64,000 bases of DNA, taken from assembly GCF_003752595.1 (NCBI RefSeq), contig NZ_RKIJ01000014.1, positions 62,001 through 126,000 on the forward strand, read 5' to 3'. The position numbers and the translations under genes are program-made. Positions 5,282 through 61,600 of the stretch are shown here, piece by piece. Numbering within the stretch: the first letter of the stretch is position 1; each line of letters begins with the position of its first letter. The DNA comes from Cellulomonas sp. PhB143. Its GTDB lineage: Bacteria > Actinomycetota > Actinomycetes > Actinomycetales > Cellulomonadaceae. Under the pieces are notes generated by a model that worked only from the letters and a program-made list of their open reading frames with translations, was not told where the DNA came from and did not search any database.

Positions 5282-6490
5282 ATGGCGACGGCTTCGAGGA
5301 ACAGCAGCCTTCAGGCTGCCCGCGACACGAAGAACGACGAGTTCTACACCCAGTGGCCGGACATCGAGCGCGAGATAAACGCCTACCTCGAGTACGACCC
5401 GGACGTATTCCGCGGCCAGGTCATCCTCTGCCCGTGCGACGACCCCGAGTGGTCGAACTTCGCGAAATTCTTCGCCCTGCACTTCACGGACTTCGGCCTC
5501 AAGAAGCTCATCTCAACCTCGTACGCCCCGGACTCCAACCCGGCCCATTTTTCCTACGAGCCAACCTTGTTCGAACTCAACGATCCACGGTTCGATGAGA
5601 CGAAGACGCACGCCAACGGTAAGAAGTTCGTGCTCGAGGCCCAGGACATCAGCGGCGACGGTGCCGTCAACATCGATGACCTGCGGTGGGAGTACCTCGA
5701 GGGCGACGGCGACTTCCGGAGTGCGGAGGTCACGGCTTTGCGCGACGAGGCCGACTTCGTCATCACCAACCCGCCGTTCAGCCTGTTCCGCCAGTTCATG
5801 ACATGGGCCGTGCGGGGCGGTGTGAAATTCTCAGTGATCGGCAACAACAACGCCATCACCTACAACGAAGTATTCCCTCACATGAAGGCGAATGAACTCT
5901 GGAAGGGTGCTACAGCGAACAGCACAGACATGGTGTTCGGTGTCCCGAAAGGTGCGAAGGTCTCTGAGGCTGACCGTCTCAAGGCGGAAAAGCTTGGCTA
6001 CCCCGCGGATAACGAGCGCGACTACACGCGCCTCGGGAACTCGTGCTGGTTCACGAACATCGACCATGGCCGACGCCATGAACCGCTGCAGTTGATGACG
6101 ACCGCCGACAACATCAAGTTCAGTCGCCACAAGGAAGTGCGCGGCGTCGGTTACCTCGACTATGACAACTTTCCGGGCATCGAGGTGCCGTTCGTTGATG
6201 CCATCCCCAGTGATCATGACGGGATCATCGGGGTGCCGATCACCTTCCTGGACAAGTACAACCCCGACCAGTTCGAGATCCTGGGCAGCAGCGAGGGCGA
6301 CTTCCCGCAGACGAAGACGTACGGACCCAAGATGCGCGTCGTTGACGGGGAGCGGATGAAGTCGAACACGGGGTCTTTCGGCTGCTTCGTGCGGGCTGAC
6401 TCGTTCGGGCCCGGGACGTACTTCGACGTCGGATACCCGGTCAAGCGAATCTACAAGCGCATCTTTATCCGACGGAAGGAGGCTTCGTGA
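5282..6490 (+). CDS. EcoRI-type adenine-specific DNA methyltransferase
   Basis: The 402-aa protein has the marks of the EcoRI methylase family (Adenine_MTase EcoRI, PF13651-type), which makes N6-methyladenine at a short target. These are KNDEFYTQ near residues 17-24, the SAM-side segment [13 protein letters not shown] near 49-61, and the catalytic NPPF near 163-166 (within [15 protein letters not shown]). Codon use is markedly less GC-rich than in the flanking genes, a sign of transfer. A TAGAAT box at 5211-5216 could be the -10 of its promoter; no convincing -35 was found. The stop overlaps the next start (GTGA), so the nuclease is translationally coupled. Target specificity cannot be read from sequence. 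Confidence 0.9.
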
Positions 6491-7653
6491 AGACAGACCT
6501 CAAGCACTACACCGTCAGCCAGGTCGTCGAGGGCTTCGTCTACAACGAACTCGAGGGCAAGGGGCTCTTTGGCCTCGCCGGTGCGCTTGTTATCCAGCCG
6601 GAGTACCAGCGAAACTATATCTACAACGACGGCAAGAAGGACGTCGCCGTAATCGACTCCCTGCTCAAGGGATACCCGCTCGGTCTCATCTACTTCAACG
6701 TCGAGGACGACGTGCTCGAGGTGCTCGACGGTCAGCAGCGGATCACGAGCTTCGGCAGATTTGTCACGGGCAAGTTCGCAATCCAAGTTGACGGCAAGGA
6801 GCAGACCTTCTCGTCCCTGTCGAAAGACCAGCAGGCGAAGATCCTCGAGACCGAGCTTGACATCTACGAGTGCGACGGGTCCGAGGTTGAAATCAAGCAG
6901 TGGTTCGAGACGATCAACATCGTCGGCGTCCCGCTCAACGATCAGGAACTACTCAACGCGATCTACTCGGGTCCATTCGTCACCGCGGCCAAGGTTGAGT
7001 TCTCCAACTCGAACAACGCGTACATGCAGAAGTGGCAGTCCTACATCAAGGGCGACCCGAAGCGGCAGGGCATCCTTGCCGTCGCGCTTGGTTGGGTGGC
7101 CTCGTCGCAGGGCAAGACCGTCGACGCCTACCTCGCTGCGCACCGCAACGACACGGCGGTTGTCGAGCTAAAGACCTATTTCACGTCGGTCATCGACTGG
7201 GTCGCCGGCGTCTTCACGCGCCCGCCGGACAAAGAGATGCGCGGGCTGGAATGGGGTCGGCTCTACGAGGAGTACCACGGACAGTCGTACAACGCCGCGA
7301 CGATTGACGCGCGGATCGACGAGCTGCGCGCCGCCCCGGCGGTCCATGTGGCCAAGGGCGTGTACGAGTTCGTGCTCAGCGGCGAGACGAAGCCGCAGCT
7401 CCTCGACATCCGTCTCTTCGAGGACAAGGACAAGCGGGTGGCCTACGACCGGCAGACGAAGAAGGCCAGGGCTGCCGGGGAGTCGAACTGCCCGTTGTGC
7501 GCCCTGGGCACCGACAACAACAAGGCCAAGATCTACACGCTCAAGGAGATGGACGCCGATCACGTGACCGCCTGGTCGAAGGGCGGCGAGACAAAGCTGT
7601 CGAACCTAACGATGCTTTGCCAGACCCACAATCGTGCGAAGGGCAATCGGTAG
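6487..7653 (+). CDS. DUF262 + HNH nuclease fusion
   Basis: This 388-aa protein combines an N-terminal DUF262 (ParB/Srx-like, GmrS-type) domain with a C-terminal HNH nuclease. The DUF262 part shows [12 protein letters not shown] near residue 38, a helix reading [16 protein letters not shown], and the key DGQQRITSF near residue 80. The HNH part (about 335-388) has CPLC, then [14 protein letters not shown], then [15 protein letters not shown]. In GmrSD the DUF262 domain is an NTPase and DUF1524 is the nuclease; here a canonical HNH replaces DUF1524 in one chain. The GTG start lies inside the methyltransferase stop. Being paired with a methyltransferase suggests restriction of unmethylated DNA rather than type IV cutting of modified DNA; this is inference. 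Confidence 0.88.
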
Positions 7654-7726
7654 CAGGCCGCTGTCGGGCTTGTCGGGCAGGATACGGACCAGCAACTCAC
7701 GTCCGGTAATCAGGAGGGCTTCGAGG

Positions 7727-8932
7727 ATGCCGACAGGCAGCGAGCGTTACAGGAAGCACAAGGTCTGGGAGACCCTCAAGCTCAAGCGCGAGGCACTGCA
7801 CGCGGCCCGGTTCGGTGACGCCTCGTTGGAGCAGTGGCGCACGGACATCGTCGAGTGGCTCGACGAGGCCCTCAAGACGCGCGGCGCACGGCAGCCGGCG
7901 CTCTACCTCAGCACCCTGGATCCCCTCAGCGCCGCGCTCAACCAGCTTCCTACGGATGCCAACGCGTTCCAGTCGTACGTGGCGAGGAGCAACGCCCGCA
8001 GCGGCCAGAGTGTCGCGGTCCTCGAGGGCGCCCTGCGCGCTCTGCCCCTGCCTCCACCGAAGGACCTGAAGGCCGACTTCTTCGAGCTGATCGACAAGGA
8101 GGTCAAGGTGCACAATGTGACCCTTGCCGAGCTCGAGCGTCACGTTGCGGAGACCGAAGAGTCCCTGCAGGCTCGGCGCGACGAACTCGCTGCAGTCACC
8201 ACTGCGGTCGAGGCGCTGCACGGGGAGATCCAGCTGGAACGCGAGAAGATTTCCGGGGTCAGCGAGTCGACCGAGGCCACCATGCTGGGGGAGTGGAAGG
8301 ACGCTCTCGACACTTGGAAGCGGCAGCGCGAGGAGACCGATCACCAGCACGACGTCGAGGCTGTGGCTCACATCGGGGCTCTCGCCGCGACGACGAAGGC
8401 AGGGGAGGCGCTGGCGGAGCACGCCGCGGGCGACCTGAGCGCCGCGGACTGGTACGGCCGAGCCAAGCGAGAACGCCGGGCTGCACAGTGGATGCGAGCC
8501 GGAGCGATCGCCGCGTTCGTCTTCGCCGGGGCCGTCGGGTACTTCATCGTGGAAGAGGCGATCAAGAACAACTTCGACATCTCGGTCGGCGGCGGGATCC
8601 TGCGGGCCTCGATCGCCGTCGTCATCGGTGCGTTCGGTGGGCTGCTGCTGCGCGAGTCCGGACGACATTTCCGTGAGGCAGACACGGCTGAGGACGTGGC
8701 CCTCTCGCTCAAGGCGTTGGCCCCGTTCTACGCTAACTCTGACGAAGGTGTTCGCCTTGCGGCCCGGGTCCAGGTCGGGGATGCGGTTCTCGTCAAGAAC
8801 GTGCTGTCCCGGTTCGCAAACCGCGATGCGGCAAAGCATGCCGGGGAGGCCAGCACTGCCGATCTGCCGGGCCTCGTCGCGGAGGCATCGAAGGCGTTGA
8901 ACCTGCCCGGCGGGTCTGACACCAAGGCCTGA
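7727..8932 (+). CDS. Coiled-coil protein with two membrane segments (third gene of the island cassette)
   Basis: I do not recognise this 401-aa protein. A soluble N-terminal part of about 120 residues is followed by a long coiled coil (about 125-215, rich in Glu, Arg, Leu). Two membrane spans lie near 257-275 (AGAIAAFVFAGAVGYFIV) and 287-310 (ILRASIAVVIGAFGGLLL), with a soluble tail of about 90 residues after them. AGGAGG at 7712-7717 sets the start at ATG 7727. It lies 73 bases after the nuclease gene on the same strand. A membrane-anchored helical protein beside a modification/nuclease pair could be a sensor or an abortive-infection effector; that is inference. Confidence 0.75.
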   Translation: MPTGSERYRKHKVWETLKLKREALHAARFGDASLEQWRTDIVEWLDEALKTRGARQPALYLSTLDPLSAALNQLPTDANAFQSYVARSNARSGQSVAVLEGALRALPLPPPKDLKADFFELIDKEVKVHNVTLAELERHVAETEESLQARRDELAAVTTAVEALHGEIQLEREKISGVSESTEATMLGEWKDALDTWKRQREETDHQHDVEAVAHIGALAATTKAGEALAEHAAGDLSAADWYGRAKRERRAAQWMRAGAIAAFVFAGAVGYFIVEEAIKNNFDISVGGGILRASIAVVIGAFGGLLLRESGRHFREADTAEDVALSLKALAPFYANSDEGVRLAARVQVGDAVLVKNVLSRFANRDAAKHAGEASTADLPGLVAEASKALNLPGGSDTKA

Positions 8933-50877: not shown

Positions 50878-51432
50878 ATGGCGGTCCTGACGCTGGCGTC
50901 GGCCCGTGCAGCAGGGCTGCGCAAGGACGAGGTCTACCGCATGGCTCGGTCCGGTGAGCTGGAGAGGATCGGGCGCGGCGTGTATGCCCGGGCCGGTGAG
51001 CTCGACCCTGCCGTAGCGCCGCTGTCGGGCGCGACCGCGCTCAAGCCGTCCGCGACGATGTGTCTGACGAGCGCGCTGGTGCACCACGGGCTGAGCGACG
51101 AGATCCCGCATGCGACCGACATCGCTCTGCCGCGCGGCACCAGGTTCCCCGCGGGCTTCGACCACGTGACGTGGCATGCCTTCGCGCCGGAGACCTTCGA
51201 GGTCGGACGCGTCACCATGCCCGAGCACCCGGACTTGACGATGTACTCAGCCGAGCGGTCCGTCGTGGACGCTTTCCGGACCGCCCATCTCGAGGGGATC
51301 GACCAGGCCAACGAGGCGCTGCGTCGGTGGGTGCGGCGCCCGGGGAGCTCGCCTGCCGAGCTCCTGCGCACCGCCGGACGTTTTCCCCGAACCGTCACTG
51401 CCATCCGCCATGCGCTCCAGGTGCTGCTGTGA
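50878..51432 (+). CDS. AbiEi-type antitoxin of a type IV toxin-antitoxin system
   Basis: The 184-aa protein starts with a winged-helix DNA-binding part (LASARAAGLRKDEVYRMARSGELERIGRGVYAR, residues 7-39) and continues with the AbiEi C-terminal domain (SERSVVDAFRTAHLEG near 122-137). AbiEi represses the operon and counters the AbiEii nucleotidyltransferase without binding it. An excellent TAGGAGG precedes ATG 50878. It overlaps the toxin gene by four bases. Confidence 0.88.
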   Translation: MAVLTLASARAAGLRKDEVYRMARSGELERIGRGVYARAGELDPAVAPLSGATALKPSATMCLTSALVHHGLSDEIPHATDIALPRGTRFPAGFDHVTWHAFAPETFEVGRVTMPEHPDLTMYSAERSVVDAFRTAHLEGIDQANEALRRWVRRPGSSPAELLRTAGRFPRTVTAIRHALQVLL

Positions 51433-52225
51433 GTCCGAACCCGACACGCGAGACCCCCGCGGGTCGCGCGTACAACGACCTGCGCAACCTCGCCAAGGCA
51501 CAGGGCCGCGATCCGGCGGAGCTCCTGACGCTGTACGCGCTCGAGGGCCTTCTCACCCGGCTCGCGGCCTCGGACCAGCGCGAAGACTTCGTGCTCAAGG
51601 GCGGCGTGCTCCTCGCGGCCTTCGCAGCGCGTCGTCCCACCCGGGACATCGACCTGGCCGCGTCGGGATTCTCGAACGACGTCGACGACGTCGAGCGCCG
51701 GGTGCGGAAGATCGTGTCGATCGAGGTCGCCGACGGTCTGGACTTCGATACCGCCGCGATCCGCAGCGAGACCATCCGCGAGGAGTCGGAGTACGCCGGC
51801 GTGCGGGTCCACCTGCTCGCAGCGGTGTCGAAGGCGCGGATCCCGATCCACGCCGACGTCAACTTCGGTGACCCGATCTGGCCGGCGCCACGAGCCCGAC
51901 GGTGCCCCTGCTCCTCGGTGGTGAGGTAACGCTGCAGGGATACCCGGCACACATGGTCCTCGCGGAGAAGATCGTCACCGCAATCGACCGGGGCGTGGCG
52001 AACACACGATGGCGTGACTTCGTCGACATCGCCTCGATCAGTCGGACTCAGGCTATCGGCGCAGACGATCTCGTCGCCGCGATAAGAGTCGTGGCGGATC
52101 ACCGGCACGTCGAGCTCCGAAGTCTCGATGAGTCGCTCGCCGGCATGGGCGAGGTTGCGCAGCCGCGATGGGGCGCTTGGCGGCGGAAGCAGCGCCTTGC
52201 CAGCAGCACGCCGGAGAGCTTTTAA
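51429..52225 (+). pseudogene. AbiEii-type nucleotidyltransferase toxin with one frameshift
   Basis: The first frame gives VLKGGVLLAAFAARRPTRDIDLAASG (GG...DxD of the nucleotidyltransferase) and IHADVNFGDPIWPAP. It then runs into a wrong frame and stops at 51929. The continuation is in another frame: PLLLGGEVTLQGYPAHMVLAEKIVTAIDRG, RWRDFVDIASI. Adding one C to the CC near 51889 restores PAPTSPTVPLLL. Length is one base short of a multiple of three. The toxin carries all expected motifs apart from this shift; whether it is dead or misassembled is open. Confidence 0.85.
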
Positions 52226-53747: not shown

Positions 53748-54216
53748 AGCGACGCGGCAGCTGCGAGAGCGTGCGCGTCACGTGCTCGAGCCAGCGGCTC
53801 ACGGTGGCTAGCTCGTCGGGGGTGAAGCCGTCGGTCAGGCGGTCGTTCAGCTCGGCCAGCGCGGCGCGGACGTCGTCCAGCGCGGCGGTGCCAGCGGACG
53901 TGAGGTCCAGGCGGACAGCGCGCCGGTCGTTCGGGTCGGCACGACGGCGCACGAGCTCGGCGCGCTCCATCCGGGCCAGCAGGCCGCTGGCGCCCGCGGG
54001 GGAGGCCTGTAGCGCGGCCGTCACCTCGCCGATCGTCGCGCCGGGGTGGTCCGCGAGGTGGAGCAGTACCCCGGCGGCCGGGGCGCCGATGCCGTGTCCG
54101 TTCCCGGGGGCGCCGGAGTGCCCGGTGGCGCGCCGCGCGATCCATCGCCGCATCTGGCGCTCCGCCGCGGTGGTGAGGAACACCAGCCGCGGCGTCCGCT
54201 GCCAGTCGTCCGTCAT
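53557..54216 (-). CDS. MarR family regulator with an Arg-rich tail
   Basis: Residues 1-155 are a MarR winged helix: LLHLADHPGATIGEVTAALQASPAGASGLLARMERAELVRRRADPNDRRAVRLDLTSAG carries the helix-turn-helix and wing near 50-110. The remaining 60 residues are Arg/Gly/Ser/Thr-rich and look like a frame read past a lost stop. ATG 54216 overlaps the hydrolase stop by four bases, so it is the second gene of an operon with that hydrolase and may regulate it. Confidence 0.8.
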   Translation of the reverse strand: MTDDWQRTPRLVFLTTAAERQMRRWIARRATGHSGAPGNGHGIGAPAAGVLLHLADHPGATIGEVTAALQASPAGASGLLARMERAELVRRRADPNDRRAVRLDLTSAGTAALDDVRAALAELNDRLTDGFTPDELATVSRWLEHVTRTLSQLPRRFRASPRGQRGRGRRPSTRRPPCGRDTSAGASAAHGSGSRTRSRRGTPPPVRRWRTRRRRPESR

Positions 54217-55157
54217 CGGCGGGACTTCTTGCCCCGGAAGCGGACTGCCGAGTCCTGCTGTGCGGGGGCGGCCTCGGCCCGCGCGTCGAGCCACGCGAGC
54301 AGCTCCGGCCACAGGGTCTCGCGCAGCCCGCGGCGGAAGAACCCGGTGTGCCCGATCGTCGAGACGCCGCCGTCGGCTGGGCTCCACGTGCGCCGCTCGA
54401 CCCGGGCGCCGGTCAGGTGGTCGGTGATCGCATCGATCTGCGCGGGCGTGGCCCACGGGTCGTCGGTGAATCCGACAGCGAGCACGTCGCCCGTGACGCG
54501 CGCGGCGTCCGCGGCGGCGGTCATGGTCGGGTCGTCGAAGAAGTACCCGGGCAGCCTCGACCAGCGGCCCCACTCGCGCATCGCCGCGGCGGGCATGTCC
54601 TCCCCGAGGCCCAGGCGGCGGCCGGGCACGTAGCCCAGCAGCTTCGCCGTCGCAGGGCCGAGCGCCCGCAGGATCAGCCCGACGCGCGCCCGCTCGCGGC
54701 GGTCGGGGATGGTGGCCGTCACGCCAGCGTGCGACGCGACCGTGACAAACCCGGCCAGGCCGCGCGACCCGTGACGGAGCGCCAGCGCGTGCCCGCCGAT
54801 GCTGTGCCCGACCGCCAGCTGCGGCACGTCGCCGAACCGCGGGCGCGCCCACGCGGCGACCGCGGGCACGTCGTCGGCCATCCAGTCCCGCATGCGCAGG
54901 CCACGATGGTCGCGCGGGCTGCCCGACCGGCCCGTGCCGCGGTAGTCGTACGTGACTGCCACGTACCCGCTGGAGGCGAGGAACTCCGCGGACCCCGTGC
55001 ACAGGCGCTCGGGGACCGCCGTCGCGGGGTGGATCACCACGACGCCGCGAGGCGACTCGTCGGCGGGCTTGCGCACCGTGCCGACGACCCACCCGCCCGC
55101 CGGGATCTGGATCCGCAGCTCCTCGGCGTCCAGCGTCGCCGTGTCGTCACTTCGCAT
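54213..55157 (-). CDS. Alpha/beta hydrolase, serine-aminopeptidase-like
   Basis: The 314-aa protein has GVVVIHPATAVPERL near residues 35-49, TYDYRGTGRSGSP near 70-82, the nucleophile elbow VGHSIGGHALAL near 112-123, and GFTDDPWATPAQIDAIT plus STIGHTGFFRRGL with the late Asp and His. The group includes uncharacterised lysophospholipase-like enzymes. GAGGT lies seven bases before ATG 55157; the in-frame extension to 55493 is unsupported. Confidence 0.87.
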   Translation of the reverse strand: MRSDDTATLDAEELRIQIPAGGWVVGTVRKPADESPRGVVVIHPATAVPERLCTGSAEFLASSGYVAVTYDYRGTGRSGSPRDHRGLRMRDWMADDVPAVAAWARPRFGDVPQLAVGHSIGGHALALRHGSRGLAGFVTVASHAGVTATIPDRRERARVGLILRALGPATAKLLGYVPGRRLGLGEDMPAAAMREWGRWSRLPGYFFDDPTMTAAADAARVTGDVLAVGFTDDPWATPAQIDAITDHLTGARVERRTWSPADGGVSTIGHTGFFRRGLRETLWPELLAWLDARAEAAPAQQDSAVRFRGKKSRR

Positions 55158-55236
55158 GCGAAATACCTCAACGGCCCGTGCACCGGGCCCATGGTCGGGC
55201 GGCCAGGGAACGCGTCGCGCGTGGCACTCTTCGGTC

Positions 55237-55503
55237 GTGAACCTGTCGAACCGGCCGCGACGGGGCTTCTGGTACCAGGTGTGGCGACCGTTCCGCGCCT
55301 TGGGGCGCGGCAACGACCGAGTCCTGGAGTTCTTCGACCTCATCAGCATCGTCGTGAACGTCGGGCGCGCCGTCCTCTGGCTCTTCGTGGCGTGGGGAGC
55401 GTCGCGGCGCGCGTCTTCGACTGGTGACGTTCGCCCGTGGTCCGGAAATCGCCCCCTCGCACTGATGACGAAGCTGACGGACACAGCGTCCATGACGCTA
55501 TGA
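55237..55503 (+). CDS. Small hypothetical membrane protein
   Basis: The GTG start gives 88 aa with an aromatic, basic N-terminus (RRGFWYQVWRPFRALG), one hydrophobic helix near residues 37-53 (LISIVVNVGRAVLWLFVAW) and a Ser/Thr-rich end. The upstream region is divergent to the hydrolase. The ribosome-binding site is weak, and the second half is of low complexity. It may be a real short membrane protein or a chance frame. Confidence 0.4.
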   Translation: MNLSNRPRRGFWYQVWRPFRALGRGNDRVLEFFDLISIVVNVGRAVLWLFVAWGASRRASSTGDVRPWSGNRPLALMTKLTDTASMTL

Positions 55504-56379: not shown

Positions 56380-57186
56380 GTGAAGCGCATCCTCACCCTT
56401 GTCACCGCCGCGGCGATCGCCCTGAGCCTCGCGGCGTGCTCCGGCGCGGAGGCCCCTGCCGAGCAGCCGGCGACCGCCGGGGCGGCCGAGTCGGAGACCG
56501 CCAGCCCGACGCCTACCGAGGAGCCGGACCCGGTCGCCGAGAACTGGGACGACATCGTCGCGTTCGTCGAAGCGACCCACGTCAACGACACCGACACAGC
56601 GATGGCCGTCACGGCGAAGGACAGCCCGGCGGTGGAGTACGTCGCCTATATCCGCGACAATGCACTCGCTGACCAGACTGCCGGGTTCGACCCGCACATG
56701 TTCGACGACGGGTACTCGTTCGATGGCGACAAGAAGAAGCAGGAAGTCGCCATCTCCTTCCGGGACACCACGGGTAATGGCAGCGACCCGCAGGACTACA
56801 CCTGGTCCGATTGGAAGGTGACCGAGGACGGCAAGATCGAGTCGTGGACCGGAGCGTCTGGCTCGATCAGCAAGGTGCTCGGCAAGGAGCACGACTCGAA
56901 GAAGGCCAAGGGCCAGACGGTCACTGTCGCCCACGCGTACAAGGCGAACTCGGGCGCGGTCATCATCGTTCTGAAGGTCGACTCCAACGTCAGTGAGTAC
57001 CCAGACACCGCCCCCGTCTACGTCGGTCCGGACGGCGTCGCGCGCAAGCCTGCACAGGTGAGCACGACAGACCTTGTCGAGGGCGCCACCTCGTACCTGT
57101 CGTACGTGTACACGGACGCCGACTTCGGCGGGAAGTTGAAGTACCTCGTCGACTACGAGACCCCGGTGACGCTCACGATCAAGTGA
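56380..57186 (+). CDS. Lipoprotein of unknown function
   Basis: The 268-aa protein begins with a lipoprotein signal (MKRILTLVTAAAIALSLAAC, lipobox LAAC with Cys20). A Glu/Pro/Thr-rich linker (about 21-50) comes next, then a beta-rich domain with FDDGYSFDGDKKKQEVAISFRDT, TVAHAYKANSGAVIIVLKVDS and a terminal YLVDYETPVTLTI. No Cys other than the lipid-anchored one is evident. A surface-anchored binding protein is likely; the ligand is unknown. Confidence 0.8.
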   Translation: MKRILTLVTAAAIALSLAACSGAEAPAEQPATAGAAESETASPTPTEEPDPVAENWDDIVAFVEATHVNDTDTAMAVTAKDSPAVEYVAYIRDNALADQTAGFDPHMFDDGYSFDGDKKKQEVAISFRDTTGNGSDPQDYTWSDWKVTEDGKIESWTGASGSISKVLGKEHDSKKAKGQTVTVAHAYKANSGAVIIVLKVDSNVSEYPDTAPVYVGPDGVARKPAQVSTTDLVEGATSYLSYVYTDADFGGKLKYLVDYETPVTLTIK

Positions 57187-57565: not shown

Positions 57566-58690
57566 ATGGTGCACGTTCCGGCCTATGTCGCCGACCGGAT
57601 CCGGCAGCCCGTTCCTGACGGGTGCTCGGTCGTGCCGGGATCCACTCCGGTCGTCGTCTTTGGCGATCTGCGCACGGCCACCGTGGCGACCCTCGGCTTC
57701 AATCCGAGCGAGAACGAGTTTGTCACCAACGACGGTGCGCCGGTCGACCCGCGCCGACTCGCGACCTACGAGTCCCTCGGTGTCGGGACGCTCACGACGG
57801 CGACAGACGAGCAGGTCGCCCAGGTGCTGACCGAGTGCTACGAGTACTTTAGGTACCATCCGTACTGGACCTACTTCAAGCCGTCGGAGAACCTGCTGCA
57901 GACGACGGTAGGAGCCTCGTACCTCGACGGCACCGCCGTCCACCTCGATCTCATCCAATGGGCGACCGATCCCGTCTTCGGCATGCTGCAAGGCCCGGTC
58001 CGCAAGAAGCTCGTTGCTGCTGATCAGGAGTTCCTCCGCCAGCAGCTCCTCTCCGAGAGCGTCCGCCTGGTCCTCCTCAACGGTGCTGGCGTGATCGATG
58101 CCGTGAGGAAGATGGGCGTGGACCTCGTCGAGGCCGAGCCCGCTGCTGCGGAGGACAAGTCCGCGAAGATCGTCGTCGGGGAAGAGTACGGGGCCTGCTT
58201 CATCGGCTGGAACAGGTTTCTCCCGAGTGCCCACGGCGTGACGAACGCGCTCAAGCAAGCGATCTACGCGCGGGTCAAGGACGAAGCCCGGAAGGCAAAG
58301 TTCACCCTTCACCCCGAGCCCGTGGCGCCGTCTGACGGCTTCATCGAGCGCGACGCGATCGTGACCACAGGGGGTGAGTTGCACGCGCTCCTCAAGGCCT
58401 GGACCGAGACGTCAACCGCCGCCACGATCGGCGACGTCGGCACTTTCGGTGGCAAGGCGTGGCTGTCCTGGCAGCACGGTGCCCAGACGATCGTTCTCAA
58501 CGCCGACACGAGCCGCGCCGCAGTGCTCGAGTACCTCGCTTTCGCTGCCGAGCACGGAGTCGAAGAACCGTGGCGCGTCGTGGCCAACGCGAAGGGCAAG
58601 GTGAACCGTGTCGTCTACCGTGACGACCTGAAGTTGACCGGTTGGTACTGCTACACGCCAAAGCCGTGGACGACACCGGGCGATCTTTGA
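57566..58690 (+). CDS. Hypothetical protein with uracil-DNA-glycosylase-like motifs
   Basis: The 374-aa protein has TLGFNPSENEF near residues 42-52, which resembles motif A of the MUG/TDG uracil glycosylase class (GxNPS/G), then WATDPVFG near 135 and VLLNGAGVID near 172-181, the place of a second glycosylase loop. A C-terminal domain (about 270-374) is beta-rich with KAWLSWQHGAQTIVLNAD. I do not recognise the family; the fold assignment is a guess from motifs. The ATG at 57566 is preferred to one at 57383 because the extension is Arg/Pro-rich. Confidence 0.7.
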   Translation: MVHVPAYVADRIRQPVPDGCSVVPGSTPVVVFGDLRTATVATLGFNPSENEFVTNDGAPVDPRRLATYESLGVGTLTTATDEQVAQVLTECYEYFRYHPYWTYFKPSENLLQTTVGASYLDGTAVHLDLIQWATDPVFGMLQGPVRKKLVAADQEFLRQQLLSESVRLVLLNGAGVIDAVRKMGVDLVEAEPAAAEDKSAKIVVGEEYGACFIGWNRFLPSAHGVTNALKQAIYARVKDEARKAKFTLHPEPVAPSDGFIERDAIVTTGGELHALLKAWTETSTAATIGDVGTFGGKAWLSWQHGAQTIVLNADTSRAAVLEYLAFAAEHGVEEPWRVVANAKGKVNRVVYRDDLKLTGWYCYTPKPWTTPGDL

Positions 58691-58851
58691 ACGCCGCCCA
58701 GGTGTGCTCACAGGCGTTCGCCCCGCGCCGCTCACGTGCTGCGGCGACCCTGTCAAAGTTCACCCGGTGACAGAGGCATTACGCGAGCTCGGAGGCGTGG
58801 ACGTCCTCGATGAGGTCCTACGCTTCGGGCAGCAGACGAACAGGAGGGCCC

Positions 58852-60174
58852 GTGGGCGCCGAGCTTGAGCTGGTCAGTGACGGCAGTGGTCTCGCTGTCG
58901 TCGGTGCGGAAGACGCGATCGAGCAGTTCCTGCTCGATATCGACCTCGTCGTCACGAACTCGCGGCCTCTGGCGCAGGCGGCCGTGGAGGGTGTCCACGC
59001 TGGAAGCGGCCTTGGCGGCCTGGCGCTGCAGGCTGGCGGACAGATCGCTGCTGAGTCGGGACGCTGGCTCAAGCTCACGGAGGAATCTGCGGCAAAGGTC
59101 CGCGAGTTCGGCTTGCAGGCGACCAAGGACAATCCGGCGATCAGTCACGCGATGATCGGTAAGCCGGGCGACGTGCAGTCCTGGATCCAGGTGGTCAACT
59201 CGCCGGCCGCGCTCTTCACGAACCCTGCAGCCCTCGCCTCGATCGGGACGATGATGGCCCAGCGCGAGCTGCAGCGGTCGATTGATGAGCTCCGTGAGTA
59301 CCTCGCGCAGATCGACAAGAAGGTCGACGACATCCTGCGTGCGCAGAAGGACGGGATTTTCGCTGAGATGATCGGGGTGTCCCTCCTGGTCGACGACGCC
59401 AACACGGTCCGCGACGAGGTCGGTCGGGTTCCGGAGATCACCTGGTCGAAGATCCAGGGCGGTGCGGCGACCATTGCCAGCACTCAGGCGTATGCGGTGC
59501 GGCGGCTCGATGCTCTGGCTGACGGGCTCGAGTCCGAGCAGGACCTCGGAGACCTGGTCAAGGCGACGCAGAGTGCCCGCACCTCCGTCTCGGAATGGCT
59601 CGCGGTGATCGCCCGCTCGGTCCACGTGCAGGATGCGATCGACGTCCTCGAGCTCGACCGCGTCGCCGATGCGAACCCCGAAGAACTTGACCGGCATCGT
59701 GCCGGGCTGCGCCTGGCGCGTCAGAAGCGCCTGGACGTGATCGCCAGAGCGTGCGGCCAGCTCGTCGATCGCATGAACGAAGCATCGAGCAGGGCCAACC
59801 AGAAGGTGCTCTTCAACCCGTTCGCGTCACCGAAGGTCGTGGGCGCCAGCAACGAAGTGGTCGGCGCTGTCCTTGAGCTCGAGAGGCGCCTCGATCTCGT
59901 GACGGAGTCGGAGACCGCCGAGGCGCGTCGTTGGCTCGCCGCCCTTGTGGACACCCGGGACCAGGCGGTCGAATCCGGGCAGGATGCGCTCGTCGCCGCA
60001 CGACGGCGGAGCGCACAGGCAGCTGAGAAGACAAGCGATCTGCGGGTCAAGGCGTTCGAGGCAGGGAGCGATGGCGTCGCTCGTGCGAGCGAGGCCACTA
60101 GCAGGTTCTTCGGTGGTCTCGCCGACCGGGCCCGTCGCCGACAGGGCGTTGGTGACGAAGCTCGGATCGACTGA
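58852..60174 (+). CDS. Long helical/coiled-coil protein
   Basis: This 440-aa protein is largely helical. A Gly/Ala-rich segment lies at about 45-75, REFGLQATKDNPAISHAM follows, then heptad-rich helices (LQRSIDELREYLAQIDKKVDDIL near 145-167; many Ala/Glu/Arg turns to the end). No membrane segment or enzyme motif is seen. AGGAGG lies four bases before GTG 58852. It is followed by a GIY-YIG nuclease gene and may form a complex with it; that is inferred from adjacency only. Confidence 0.7.
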   Translation: MGAELELVSDGSGLAVVGAEDAIEQFLLDIDLVVTNSRPLAQAAVEGVHAGSGLGGLALQAGGQIAAESGRWLKLTEESAAKVREFGLQATKDNPAISHAMIGKPGDVQSWIQVVNSPAALFTNPAALASIGTMMAQRELQRSIDELREYLAQIDKKVDDILRAQKDGIFAEMIGVSLLVDDANTVRDEVGRVPEITWSKIQGGAATIASTQAYAVRRLDALADGLESEQDLGDLVKATQSARTSVSEWLAVIARSVHVQDAIDVLELDRVADANPEELDRHRAGLRLARQKRLDVIARACGQLVDRMNEASSRANQKVLFNPFASPKVVGASNEVVGAVLELERRLDLVTESETAEARRWLAALVDTRDQAVESGQDALVAARRRSAQAAEKTSDLRVKAFEAGSDGVARASEATSRFFGGLADRARRRQGVGDEARID

Positions 60175-60207
60175 GATGATGGCGAGCCTTCCTGGAGACC
60201 TGCACTC

Positions 60208-61020
60208 ATGTCGCTGACGCTCGACCCGATCCTGCGTAGCGGAGGTATCGATCCCCACGGGGCCCTCGTGATCAGGCACGCGTACGTCAAGGAGCATGAG
60301 GACACGGGCCTGCCCGGCATCCACGCCGACTCCACCGACGAGGAAATCCTCGCGTACACCCGCAGACAGTCGGCATCCCCCCGGATCTTCCCCGCCGCAC
60401 CGCCTGCCATCTGGGTGGTGTTCGTCCGCGAGGGAGGCGATCGGGCGCGCCTATGGTCGGTGCTAGAGAACCGGGGCGAGGTTGCGTACGACGGCGCGTT
60501 CCGCACCTTCGACCTGGTCGTGTCCGAGCGACTTGCGGACCTGAGGGACCGGCTGGTGATCGGGTGGCGCTCCCCGCGCACGTGGCGGCTCAACGGCCCC
60601 ACGGCCGCGGGCTACCCGGTGATGGAGATCTCCGACGCGCAGCCGGTGCCGTTTCCGGGTTTCGACCGACTCGTACTCGACCACGCGCAGCTCCAGGCGG
60701 TGATGCGCGAGCACCGCTACGCCGCGTGGCGCACCGCGCTCGCGTCCGTCGTCGGTGTCTACCTGATCACCGATACCTGCGATGGGCGGCACTACGTCGG
60801 CAAGGCCGATGGCGCGGAGAGCATTCGGCAGCGCTGGACCGCCTACGCGACCAATGGCCACGGTGGCAACGTCGAACTGCGCACCAGCGACCCGACGAGC
60901 TTCCGCTTCTCTCTGCTGCGGGTGTTTGACCCGTCAACACCTACGAGGGTGATCGACGAGGCTGAGAGTCACTTCAAGGTCGCCCTGGACTCGCGGACGC
61001 ATGGATTGAATCGAAACTGA
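60208..61020 (+). CDS. GIY-YIG nuclease family protein
   Basis: The 270-aa protein carries a C-terminal GIY-YIG domain: GVYLITDT at 182-189, HYVGKADG near 194-201 (the YIG element as YVG), a basic IRQRWTAYATNGHGGN near 205-220 with the conserved Arg, and a terminal VIDEAESHFKVALDSRTHGLNRN supplying the late acidic residue. The N-terminal 170 residues form a separate domain (IWVVFVREGGDRARLWSVL; FDLVVSERLADL) that may set DNA specificity. It resembles nucleases of bacterial defence or homing type. ATG 60208. Confidence 0.85.
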   Translation: MSLTLDPILRSGGIDPHGALVIRHAYVKEHEDTGLPGIHADSTDEEILAYTRRQSASPRIFPAAPPAIWVVFVREGGDRARLWSVLENRGEVAYDGAFRTFDLVVSERLADLRDRLVIGWRSPRTWRLNGPTAAGYPVMEISDAQPVPFPGFDRLVLDHAQLQAVMREHRYAAWRTALASVVGVYLITDTCDGRHYVGKADGAESIRQRWTAYATNGHGGNVELRTSDPTSFRFSLLRVFDPSTPTRVIDEAESHFKVALDSRTHGLNRN

Positions 61021-61098
61021 TCTCCGGCGGTGCATTGCAAACGCCGCGCTGACTCCGGCGAACGGTCCGTGCTGGGGTGAACTGCACACCTCCCAGGT

Positions 61099-61204: not shown

Positions 61205-61600
61205 GTGCGGGCGCAGTTCACGGGGGAGAAACCCACCACCGGCATGCTGTACGACTGGTCCGGGCTGCATGCCATCCTGGAGGAGCTCCCCGAGGGGCAC
61301 TGGACCACCTACGGGAGCCTGGCGGCTGCCATCGGCACCGCTTCGCAAGCGGTGGGGAATCACCTGCCGCAGTGCCCTCAATGCGCGAACGGCTACCGCG
61401 TCCTCAAATGCGACGGAACCATCTCGCCGGGCTTCGTATGGACGGACGCGGACGACAACAACCGGGATCCGGTTGCCGTGTTGCAGGAGGAAGGACTCGC
61501 GTTCGTCGACAGCAAGGCTGACCCTGAACGCGAGCTTCGAGAGCCGGCTGTGCTGGAGCTGGTCGGGACGAGCTCGGAGGGCTCGGCGCTGCCCGACTGA
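61205..61600 (+). CDS. Alkyltransferase-like (MGMT DNA-binding domain) protein, probably 5'-truncated
   Basis: The 131-aa protein has the alkyltransferase-like helix-turn-helix region LHAILEELPEGHWTTYGSLAAAIGTASQAVGNHL near residues 21-54, but lacks the PCHRV acceptor cysteine (the place reads PQCPQCANGYRVL), as in DNA-binding ATL proteins that flag alkylated bases. The frame continues upstream past the GTG without a good start (ADGRHLDDV) until a stop near 61161. The beginning is therefore probably lost at the junction with the relaxase stub. Confidence 0.7.
   Translation: MRAQFTGEKPTTGMLYDWSGLHAILEELPEGHWTTYGSLAAAIGTASQAVGNHLPQCPQCANGYRVLKCDGTISPGFVWTDADDNNRDPVAVLQEEGLAFVDSKADPERELREPAVLELVGTSSEGSALPD

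What the first reader, a model, noticed from the sequence alone, without database searches (positions are those of the whole stretch)
57566..61020. Uncharacterised cluster: glycosylase-like protein, helical protein, GIY-YIG nuclease
Three plus-strand genes of unfamiliar type sit next to a relaxase remnant, in DNA less GC-rich than the core. A base-recognising protein with a GxNPS motif and a GIY-YIG nuclease could together attack modified phage DNA.
Basis: inference. Interest (0 to 1): 0.6.

Follow-up and report, generated by a model that had tools for sequence, protein, structure and literature searches.

The report
Defence hotspot with glycosylase-fold gene
Three neighbouring genes in an actinobacterial genome turn out to be separately moving parts of a phage-defence hotspot: a known defence nuclease, an unnamed protein found among defence genes, and a rare protein with the fold of DNA-repair glycosylases that may cut altered bases out of invading DNA.

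Summary
The genes are real but not one system. ORF3 (60208-61020) is a full-length UzuA, the protein of the known Uzume defence system. ORF2 (58852-60174) belongs to an unnamed family found in 34 of 221 family genomes, in several beside known defence genes. ORF1 (57566-58690) has two domains. Its N-domain, without Pfam match, is predicted to have the uracil-DNA-glycosylase (UDG) fold: pLDDT 77; all 17 PDB hits at E<=0.001 are UDG superfamily; Z 14.2 to T. maritima UDG. Unexpectedly, relatives of ORF1 sit in a mobile cassette, thymidylate-synthase homolog / ORF1-like / aGPT-Pplase3-ADDT, followed by an HTH-ImmA/IrrE gene and a small gene, on a Leptospira plasmid, an actinobacterial chromosome and viral contigs; the synthase homologs mostly show the Asp of dCMP hydroxymethylase. 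The window's genome has no ADDT. Best reading: ORF1 is a Brig-like glycosylase aimed at a modified, perhaps cytosine-type, base of foreign DNA, independent of UzuA. No activity has been tested.

The parts
54213..55157 (-). alpha/beta hydrolase gene that marks the left border of the hotspot
   Evidence: Pfam Hydrolase_4 E 1.4e-8; flank shared with G050 and G205 at about 85% DNA identity
55242..58781 (.). segment absent from the same site in G205 (in G050 the shared flank runs on to 55429); holds a putative lipoprotein gene 56380-57186 and ORF1
   Evidence: blastn blocks; lipoprotein matches only below cut-offs
57566..58690 (+). ORF1, two-domain protein of 374 aa
   Evidence: start at 57566 rather than 57383 judged from the relatives
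57566..58306 (+). ORF1 N-domain, predicted UDG fold; N46, E51, H126 and D128 invariant in 10 of 10 aligned rows; F218 and P220 where the 9 relatives have N and Q
58355..58687 (+). ORF1 C-domain, a module without Pfam or PDB match, also found fused to proteins with a DRSGSM (MIDAS-like) motif
58852..60174 (+). ORF2, unnamed family (first possible start 58810)
60208..61020 (+). UzuA (Uzume), GIY-YIG nuclease; Y185, Y196, R209, E253, N268 kept
61205..61600 (+). alkyltransferase-like DNA-binding domain (Pfam DNA_binding_1); 4 of 5 relatives in other genomes lie in open frames of 685-1051 aa

Best explanation
The locus is a variable defence hotspot beside a hydrolase gene, filled with separately acquired parts. 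ORF1 belongs to an unnamed subfamily of the UDG superfamily. Most likely it flips a base out of DNA and cuts the base-sugar bond of a 5-substituted pyrimidine in invading DNA, leaving abasic sites that stop replication, as Brig1 and Brig3 do. Invariant D128 stands at the end of a core strand, about where UDGs carry the base-reading Asn, which suggests a base with a 4-amino group (cytosine type). UzuA is an independent GIY-YIG defence nuclease, ORF2 an independent defence-island protein of unknown action. Shown here: the genes, the predicted fold, the separable parts, the links of the family, absence of ADDT in the genome. Inferred: catalysis, substrate, target, any anti-phage effect.
For: Fold: AlphaFold2 with 7 sequences pLDDT 77.4, pTM 0.79; 17 of 17 Foldseek PDB hits at E<=1e-3 are UDG superfamily; VIA-align Z 14.2, rmsd 3.0, 176 residues to T. 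maritima UDG. Motif A in register with 25 family-4 UDGs, hhalign score 29.1, P 0.0017, 0 of 100 column shuffles reach 29. Separate parts: same site as hydrolase-UzuA in G050 and hydrolase-ORF2-UzuA in G205. UzuA: PADLOC E 1.1e-89. ORF2 beside Azaca, Zorya-like and GmrSD genes. ORF1 relatives lie beside TS and ADDT genes, but this genome and three others with ORF1-like genes lack ADDT, so here ORF1 does not serve such a modification pathway. Precedent: Brig1 and Brig3 excise modified cytosines of phage DNA (PMC11078745, PMC13160076, passages).
Against: No activity data. hhalign probability is only 15% and global alignment failed; the rest of the domain cannot be aligned to UDGs by sequence, so the place of D128 rests on strand order. 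Neither the family nor the window has the classical HPS motif B. The window protein alone departs from its 9 relatives at S107, V125, F138, F218 and P220, which could mean a changed substrate or decay. The family is also found in phage-like contigs and in a DNA-modification-type cassette, so an original role other than defence is possible.
Confidence: 0.5

Rival explanations
1. One reading: the three genes form one system in which ORF1 marks or opens modified bases and the GIY-YIG nuclease cuts the resulting sites.
For: Adjacent, same strand, 33 bp between ORF2 and uzuA; ORF2 and uzuA travel as one 2.2 kb block in G205; ORF1 and ORF2 also lie 4.6 kb apart in G127; both nuclease and glycosylase fold are real.
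Against: Co-occurrence near chance: ORF1-UzuA 1 against 0.29 expected, P 0.26; ORF2-UzuA 6 against 3.2, P 0.08; ORF1-ORF2 2 against 0.46, P 0.06. The ORF1 segment is absent at the same site in G050 and G205. UzuA is usually found without either.
Confidence: 0.08
2. ORF1 is a writer-side protein: in the TS/ADDT cassette it helps to make or proofread a hypermodified cytosine, and the window copy is a stray relic of such a pathway.
For: Middle gene of TS / X / ADDT in four distinct loci (Leptospira plasmid, viral contig L099 with its near-duplicate L100, viral contig L103, chromosome G703); window protein departs from its relatives at five otherwise constant positions.
Against: Six of six further plasmid cassettes opened have TS and ADDT without it, so it is not needed for writing; the host genomes G000, G141, G127 and G368 keep it without ADDT.
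Confidence: 0.2
3. ORF1 is an ordinary repair glycosylase (uracil or damaged pyrimidines).
For: UDG fold.
Against: N-domain in only 3 of 221 family genomes, 2 of 396 phylum genomes and 2 of 396 order genomes, this one counted each time; it lies in a variable insert; this genome already has two UDG-family matches elsewhere.
Confidence: 0.12

Closest known systems
Brig1 / Brig3 anti-phage DNA glycosylases (PMC11078745, PMC13160076; passages read)
   Same: UDG-superfamily fold; found in mobile or defence surroundings, Brig1 homologues mostly in Actinobacteria; Brig3 uses E55, W100, N127 and inserts N225, with similar order and spacing of E51, aromatic residues, D128 and the 218 loop in the ORF1 family (inference)
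   Different: Sequences not compared (not at hand); Asp instead of Asn/Gln at the presumed base-reading place; extra C-domain; no BapA-like partner seen; activity unknown
Family 4 UDG, UdgX, TDG/Mug, SMUG1 (repair enzymes)
   Same: Fold and motif A
   Different: 8-14% identity in the top structural hits; no Pfam UDG match; about 50 residues more between motif A and the next core strand; no HPS motif; rare and mobile
Uzume (UzuA)
   Same: ORF3 matches the whole PADLOC model with GIY-YIG residues kept
   Different: Nothing notable; mechanism listed as unknown in PMC10482375 and PMC12926258 (passages)
Phage pyrimidine hypermodification enzymes (TS/dCMP hydroxymethylase, aGPT-Pplase/ADDT)
   Same: Same enzyme families stand beside ORF1-like genes in relatives
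   Different: HTH-ImmA/IrrE and a small gene attached; plasmid and chromosomal; the ADDT query has no match in 50,697 phage records; none of it in the window's genome apart from one distant TS match
Predicted and validated nucleotide-modifying defence systems of DefensePredictor (PMC13092281; passages read)
   Same: A TS-containing system was validated there; aGPT-Pplase and UDG are named among predicted systems
   Different: Whether aGPT-Pplase and UDG are in one system, or related to ORF1, I could not see

Membership tests
UDG superfamily (ORF1 N-domain) | UDG fold | tested here: met
   (predicted model)
UDG superfamily (ORF1 N-domain) | motif A, G-x-x-P-[GS] after the first core strand | tested here: met
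   GFNPS; G44, P47, E51 shared with 25 of 25 family-4 sequences
UDG superfamily (ORF1 N-domain) | Pfam UDG (PF03167) match over cut-off | tested here: not met
   no match for ORF1 or relatives
UDG superfamily (ORF1 N-domain) | motif B (HPS-like) with intercalation loop | tested here: inconclusive
   family has N-x-Q-[SA]-x-x-G instead, window F-L-P-S-A-H-G
UDG superfamily (ORF1 N-domain) | base excision activity | not testable with these tools
   needs an enzyme assay
Brig glycosylases | sequence homology to Brig1/2/3 | not tested
   their sequences were not at hand
Brig glycosylases | protection against phages with modified bases | not testable with these tools
   needs phage assays
Uzume | full-length UzuA | tested here: met
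   PDLC03973 positions 1-278 of 278, E 1.1e-89
Uzume | intact GIY-YIG residues | tested here: met
   Y185, Y196, R209, E253, N268 in 7 of 7 aligned proteins (which residues matter is recalled)
TS / X / ADDT cassette | TS homolog and ADDT beside the ORF1-like gene | tested here: not met
   none in the window; no ADDT in the genome; the one TS match is distant, 24% identity on another contig
One three-gene defence system | the three genes co-occur and stay together | tested here: not met

The most novel reading that the evidence does not exclude
ORF1-like proteins are the restriction arm of a new mobile kind of system, a base-excision restriction and hypermodification cassette: a dCMP-hydroxymethylase-type TS and an amino-acid:DNA transferase write a cytosine hypermodification, and a UDG-fold glycosylase excises cytosine-type bases that lack or wrongly bear it, with an HTH-ImmA/IrrE pair as guard. 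The window's ORF1 is a freed copy, fitted with a C-domain and turned against modified invaders.
Probability: 0.15. Interest if true: 0.85.

Novelty: new variant of a known kind. Interest (0 to 1): 0.55.

Why it matters
Base-excising phage defence is young (Brig1 in 2024, Brig2 and Brig3 since). If the reading is right, this adds a subfamily that Pfam and PADLOC models miss, with a concrete substrate prediction (cytosine-type base, D128) and a genetic link to a mobile TS/ADDT cassette. It also flags ORF2 as an unnamed defence-island family and shows how single defence genes are shuffled in one hotspot.

Tried and rejected
Three-gene system: rejected on co-occurrence and on comparison of the site.

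AlphaFold2 of whole ORF1 with 3 sequences gave pLDDT 42 and was not used. ORF1 against Pfam, PADLOC, NCBIfam, PHROGs and PDB sequences gave nothing above chance (best PDB E 0.046 to an unrelated protein). hhalign with few UDG sequences was weak (best probability 6%, P 0.006). Global hhalign against family 4 failed, and the first shuffle control read an odd constant value; it is replaced. The merged full-length alignment does not place D128; its place is inferred from the strands of the model.

Not found: ORF1 by single-sequence pattern in genome contigs or in annotated phages (Leptospira relative); ORF2 and UzuA in viral contigs; ORF2 among PDB sequences; C-domain among PDB sequences better than E 0.3. 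Absence of a family from the fold lists excludes nothing; no Brig entry was seen among the rows shown.

A 114-121-aa neighbour of ORF1 in two Cellulomonas genomes looks by eye like a D...ExK nuclease; Pfam gave nothing.

Literature: one search returned unrelated uses of 'ADDT'. The lists showed no paper on a TS / UDG-like / ADDT cassette; that is a statement about those lists only. One search found Brig2 only in two papers that cite it. The mapping of N46 to TDG N140, the base-reading Asn of UDGs and the GIY-YIG catalytic residues are recalled, except UNG N204D (PMC11289083, passages).
Full report
What is there. The window lies on contig 6 of a 3.2 Mb genome. Genes at the place: a putative lipoprotein 56380-57186, ORF1 57566-58690, ORF2 58852-60174 (or from 58810), UzuA 60208-61020, an alkyltransferase-like DNA-binding domain 61205-61600, then an MFS transporter. 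GC of ORF1, ORF2 and UzuA is 65.0, 66.5 and 67.3%, against 72.0% for the window.

ORF3 is UzuA. PADLOC's UzuA model matches over its whole length (E 1.1e-89). The GIY-YIG residues Y185, Y196, R209, E253 and N268 are kept in 7 of 7 aligned proteins. Relatives: 21 of 221 family genomes and 394 plasmid records at E<=1e-5, of which 123 cover 80% of the query. In print Uzume is listed with unknown mechanism (PMC10482375, PMC12926258; passages).

ORF2 is an unnamed defence-island family. 34 of 221 family genomes have a match, some partial; 27 sequences align. It has no match in Pfam or PADLOC, only chance-level ones in NCBIfam and PHROGs and none among PDB sequences. I scanned ten chosen neighbours from five ORF2 loci with PADLOC. 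Three loci have clear hits: L065 (Azaca ZacA, ZacB, ZacC and a UvrD helicase), L071 (GmrSD-type and ZorA), L070 (SNF2-type helicase of the DpdE/ZorD kind). L069 (mads_2, E 1.6e-12) and L072 (AAA protein, type II REase model, E 1.9e-13) are weaker. In a sixth locus, L066, a transposase and transporter genes were found beside it. The neighbours were chosen by me, without a background rate.

ORF1 has two domains. The N-domain stands alone on Leptospira interrogans plasmid p1 and in G368, where the C-domain is a separate gene 12 bp away on the other strand. Of 19 family genomes with any ORF1 match, 3 cover the N-domain (G000, G141, G127), 15 only the C-domain, and one is a weak 72-residue match. 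In 12 of 14 C-domain loci looked at, the same frame carries a D-x-SGSM motif. The N-domain is rare: 2 of 396 phylum genomes and 2 of 396 order genomes with a profile, this genome counted each time; 0 of 16 and then 2 of 44 pattern hits in genome contigs; in viral contigs five records in all, L098, L099, L100, L103 and L104, of which L100 is a near-duplicate of L099 (12 mismatches over 16.7 kb).

Fold. AlphaFold2 of residues 1-247 with 7 sequences gives pLDDT 77.4 and pTM 0.79. Foldseek finds 17 PDB chains at E<=1e-3, all UDG superfamily: family 4, TDG, UdgX, SMUG1; the TM-scores are modest (0.39-0.48 by query). VIA-align gives Z 14.2 (rmsd 3.0, 176 residues, 12% identity) to T. maritima UDG; the tool quotes a typical best Z of 7-8 for models without a clear match. 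By sequence only the motif-A region agrees: hhalign against 25 family-4 UDGs aligns 46 columns, score 29.1, P 0.0017, probability 15%; 0 of 100 column shuffles reach 29, the best scores 22.5.

Active-site reading (inference). N46 of GFNPS stands where TDG has its catalytic Asn (recalled). In the model, strand 124-128 ends in the invariant HLD; by strand order D128 falls about where UDGs carry the base-reading Asn. UNG N204D excises cytosine (PMC11289083, passages). The window protein alone departs from its 9 aligned relatives at S107, V125, F138, F218 and P220. Positions 218 and 220 lie in the loop before the last helix, where I place Brig3's inserted N225 (PMC13160076, passages). This may mark another insertion residue or decay.

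A cassette in relatives. On Leptospira plasmid p1, in viral contig L099 (and its near-duplicate L100), in viral contig L103 and on the chromosome of G703, the ORF1-like gene stands between a TS homolog and an aGPT-Pplase3/ADDT gene (Pfam; L103 by similarity; L100). In the three distinct loci with sequence beyond ADDT, an HTH-ImmA/IrrE-type gene and a 126-138-aa gene follow on the other strand (Pfam finds the HTH in two of the three, L109 and L099). TS, X and ADDT are 37-53% identical between the four distinct loci. Three of these TS homologs, aligned with E. coli ThyA and T4 gp42, have Asp in the N177 column, as T4's dCMP hydroxymethylase does. Of ten cassette TS proteins eight show GLPHD, the Roseomonas one fits a looser pattern and the Pantoea one fits neither. 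Eight plasmid records hold ADDT relatives. Besides Leptospira I opened six of the other seven: six of six have TS directly before ADDT, five an annotated ImmA/IrrE gene after it (in Neorhizobium a hypothetical gene stands there), and none an ORF1-like gene. No record of 50,697 phages matches this ADDT. The first four loci were found through X, so the share of cassettes with X is not known.

The window's genome and G141, G127 and G368 have no ADDT. They have no close cassette TS either: G000, G141 and G127 show one match each at 24-27% identity on other contigs, and G368 none. So ORF1-like genes live without this pathway in four hosts.

History of the site. Two genomes of another genus share the hydrolase flank (window 53757-55429, about 85% DNA identity). 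In G050 UzuA follows directly. In G205 ORF2+UzuA follow as one block, 81% identical to window 58782-61021. Only the window has the stretch from about 55.2 to 58.8 kb with ORF1 between. ORF2 alone (58788-60179, 87%) stands beside Azaca in G003, of the same genus. Counts over 221 genomes: ORF1-UzuA 1 (expected 0.29, P 0.26), ORF2-UzuA 6 (3.2, P 0.08), ORF1-ORF2 2 of 3 (0.46, P 0.06); these tests ignore relatedness. In G127 ORF1 and ORF2 lie 4.6 kb apart.

Verdict. ORF1 is most likely a Brig-like base-excising defence protein with a predicted taste for a cytosine-type modified base; the step from fold to activity is untested. UzuA is a known defence gene, ORF2 an unnamed one of defence islands. 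The TS / X / ADDT cassette met on the way is the most interesting lead.

Noticed in passing
L077:4982-9155; L099:6900-11228; L109:8290-12552; L103:6947-9681: Mobile cassette: TS homolog with Asp of dCMP-hydroxymethylase type, UDG-like protein, aGPT-Pplase3/ADDT, then HTH-ImmA/IrrE gene and a 126-138-aa gene on the other strand (L103 ends after ADDT). Six of six other plasmid versions opened lack the UDG-like gene.
   Followed up: partly
58852-60174: ORF2 family without Pfam name, in 34 of 221 family genomes, in three of five scanned loci beside clear defence genes (Azaca, Zorya-like, GmrSD).
   Followed up: partly
61205-61600: Stand-alone alkyltransferase-like DNA-binding domain after uzuA; 4 of 5 relatives elsewhere are in open frames of 685-1051 aa, and in L071 such a domain is fused to GmrSD. 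It could be a fragment or a freed reader domain.
   Followed up: partly
50878-52225: AbiEi/AbiEii toxin-antitoxin pair; AbiEii is split over two overlapping ORFs in different frames that match positions 2-117 and 129-226 of the Pfam model.
   Followed up: no
5282-8932: EcoRI-type adenine methyltransferase, GmrSD_N-HNH protein and a 401-aa gene without Pfam match in a GC-poor stretch: a restriction-modification-like locus.
   Followed up: no
L071:6533-13484: GmrSD fused to an alkyltransferase-like domain and DUF4268, beside an ORF2 relative and a ZorA-like gene.
   Followed up: no
L063:2318-8297; L064:9314-12607: In two Cellulomonas genomes ORF1 is next to a 114-121-aa gene (no Pfam match) and a NERD-UvrD helicase gene (L063 copy: Pfam NERD E 2.9e-8); in L063 also a second UvrD-type helicase.
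   Followed up: partly
L078:4986-5354: The ORF1 C-domain is a gene of its own on Synechocystis plasmid pSYSA, after a DUF262 gene and near a VWA-like / MoxR pair.
   Followed up: no
L098:7347-8645; L104:4346-5101: Two phage-like contigs carry the UDG-like domain without TS or ADDT in the DNA held; in L098 it is fused to another C-terminal region of about 175 aa without Pfam match.
   Followed up: partly
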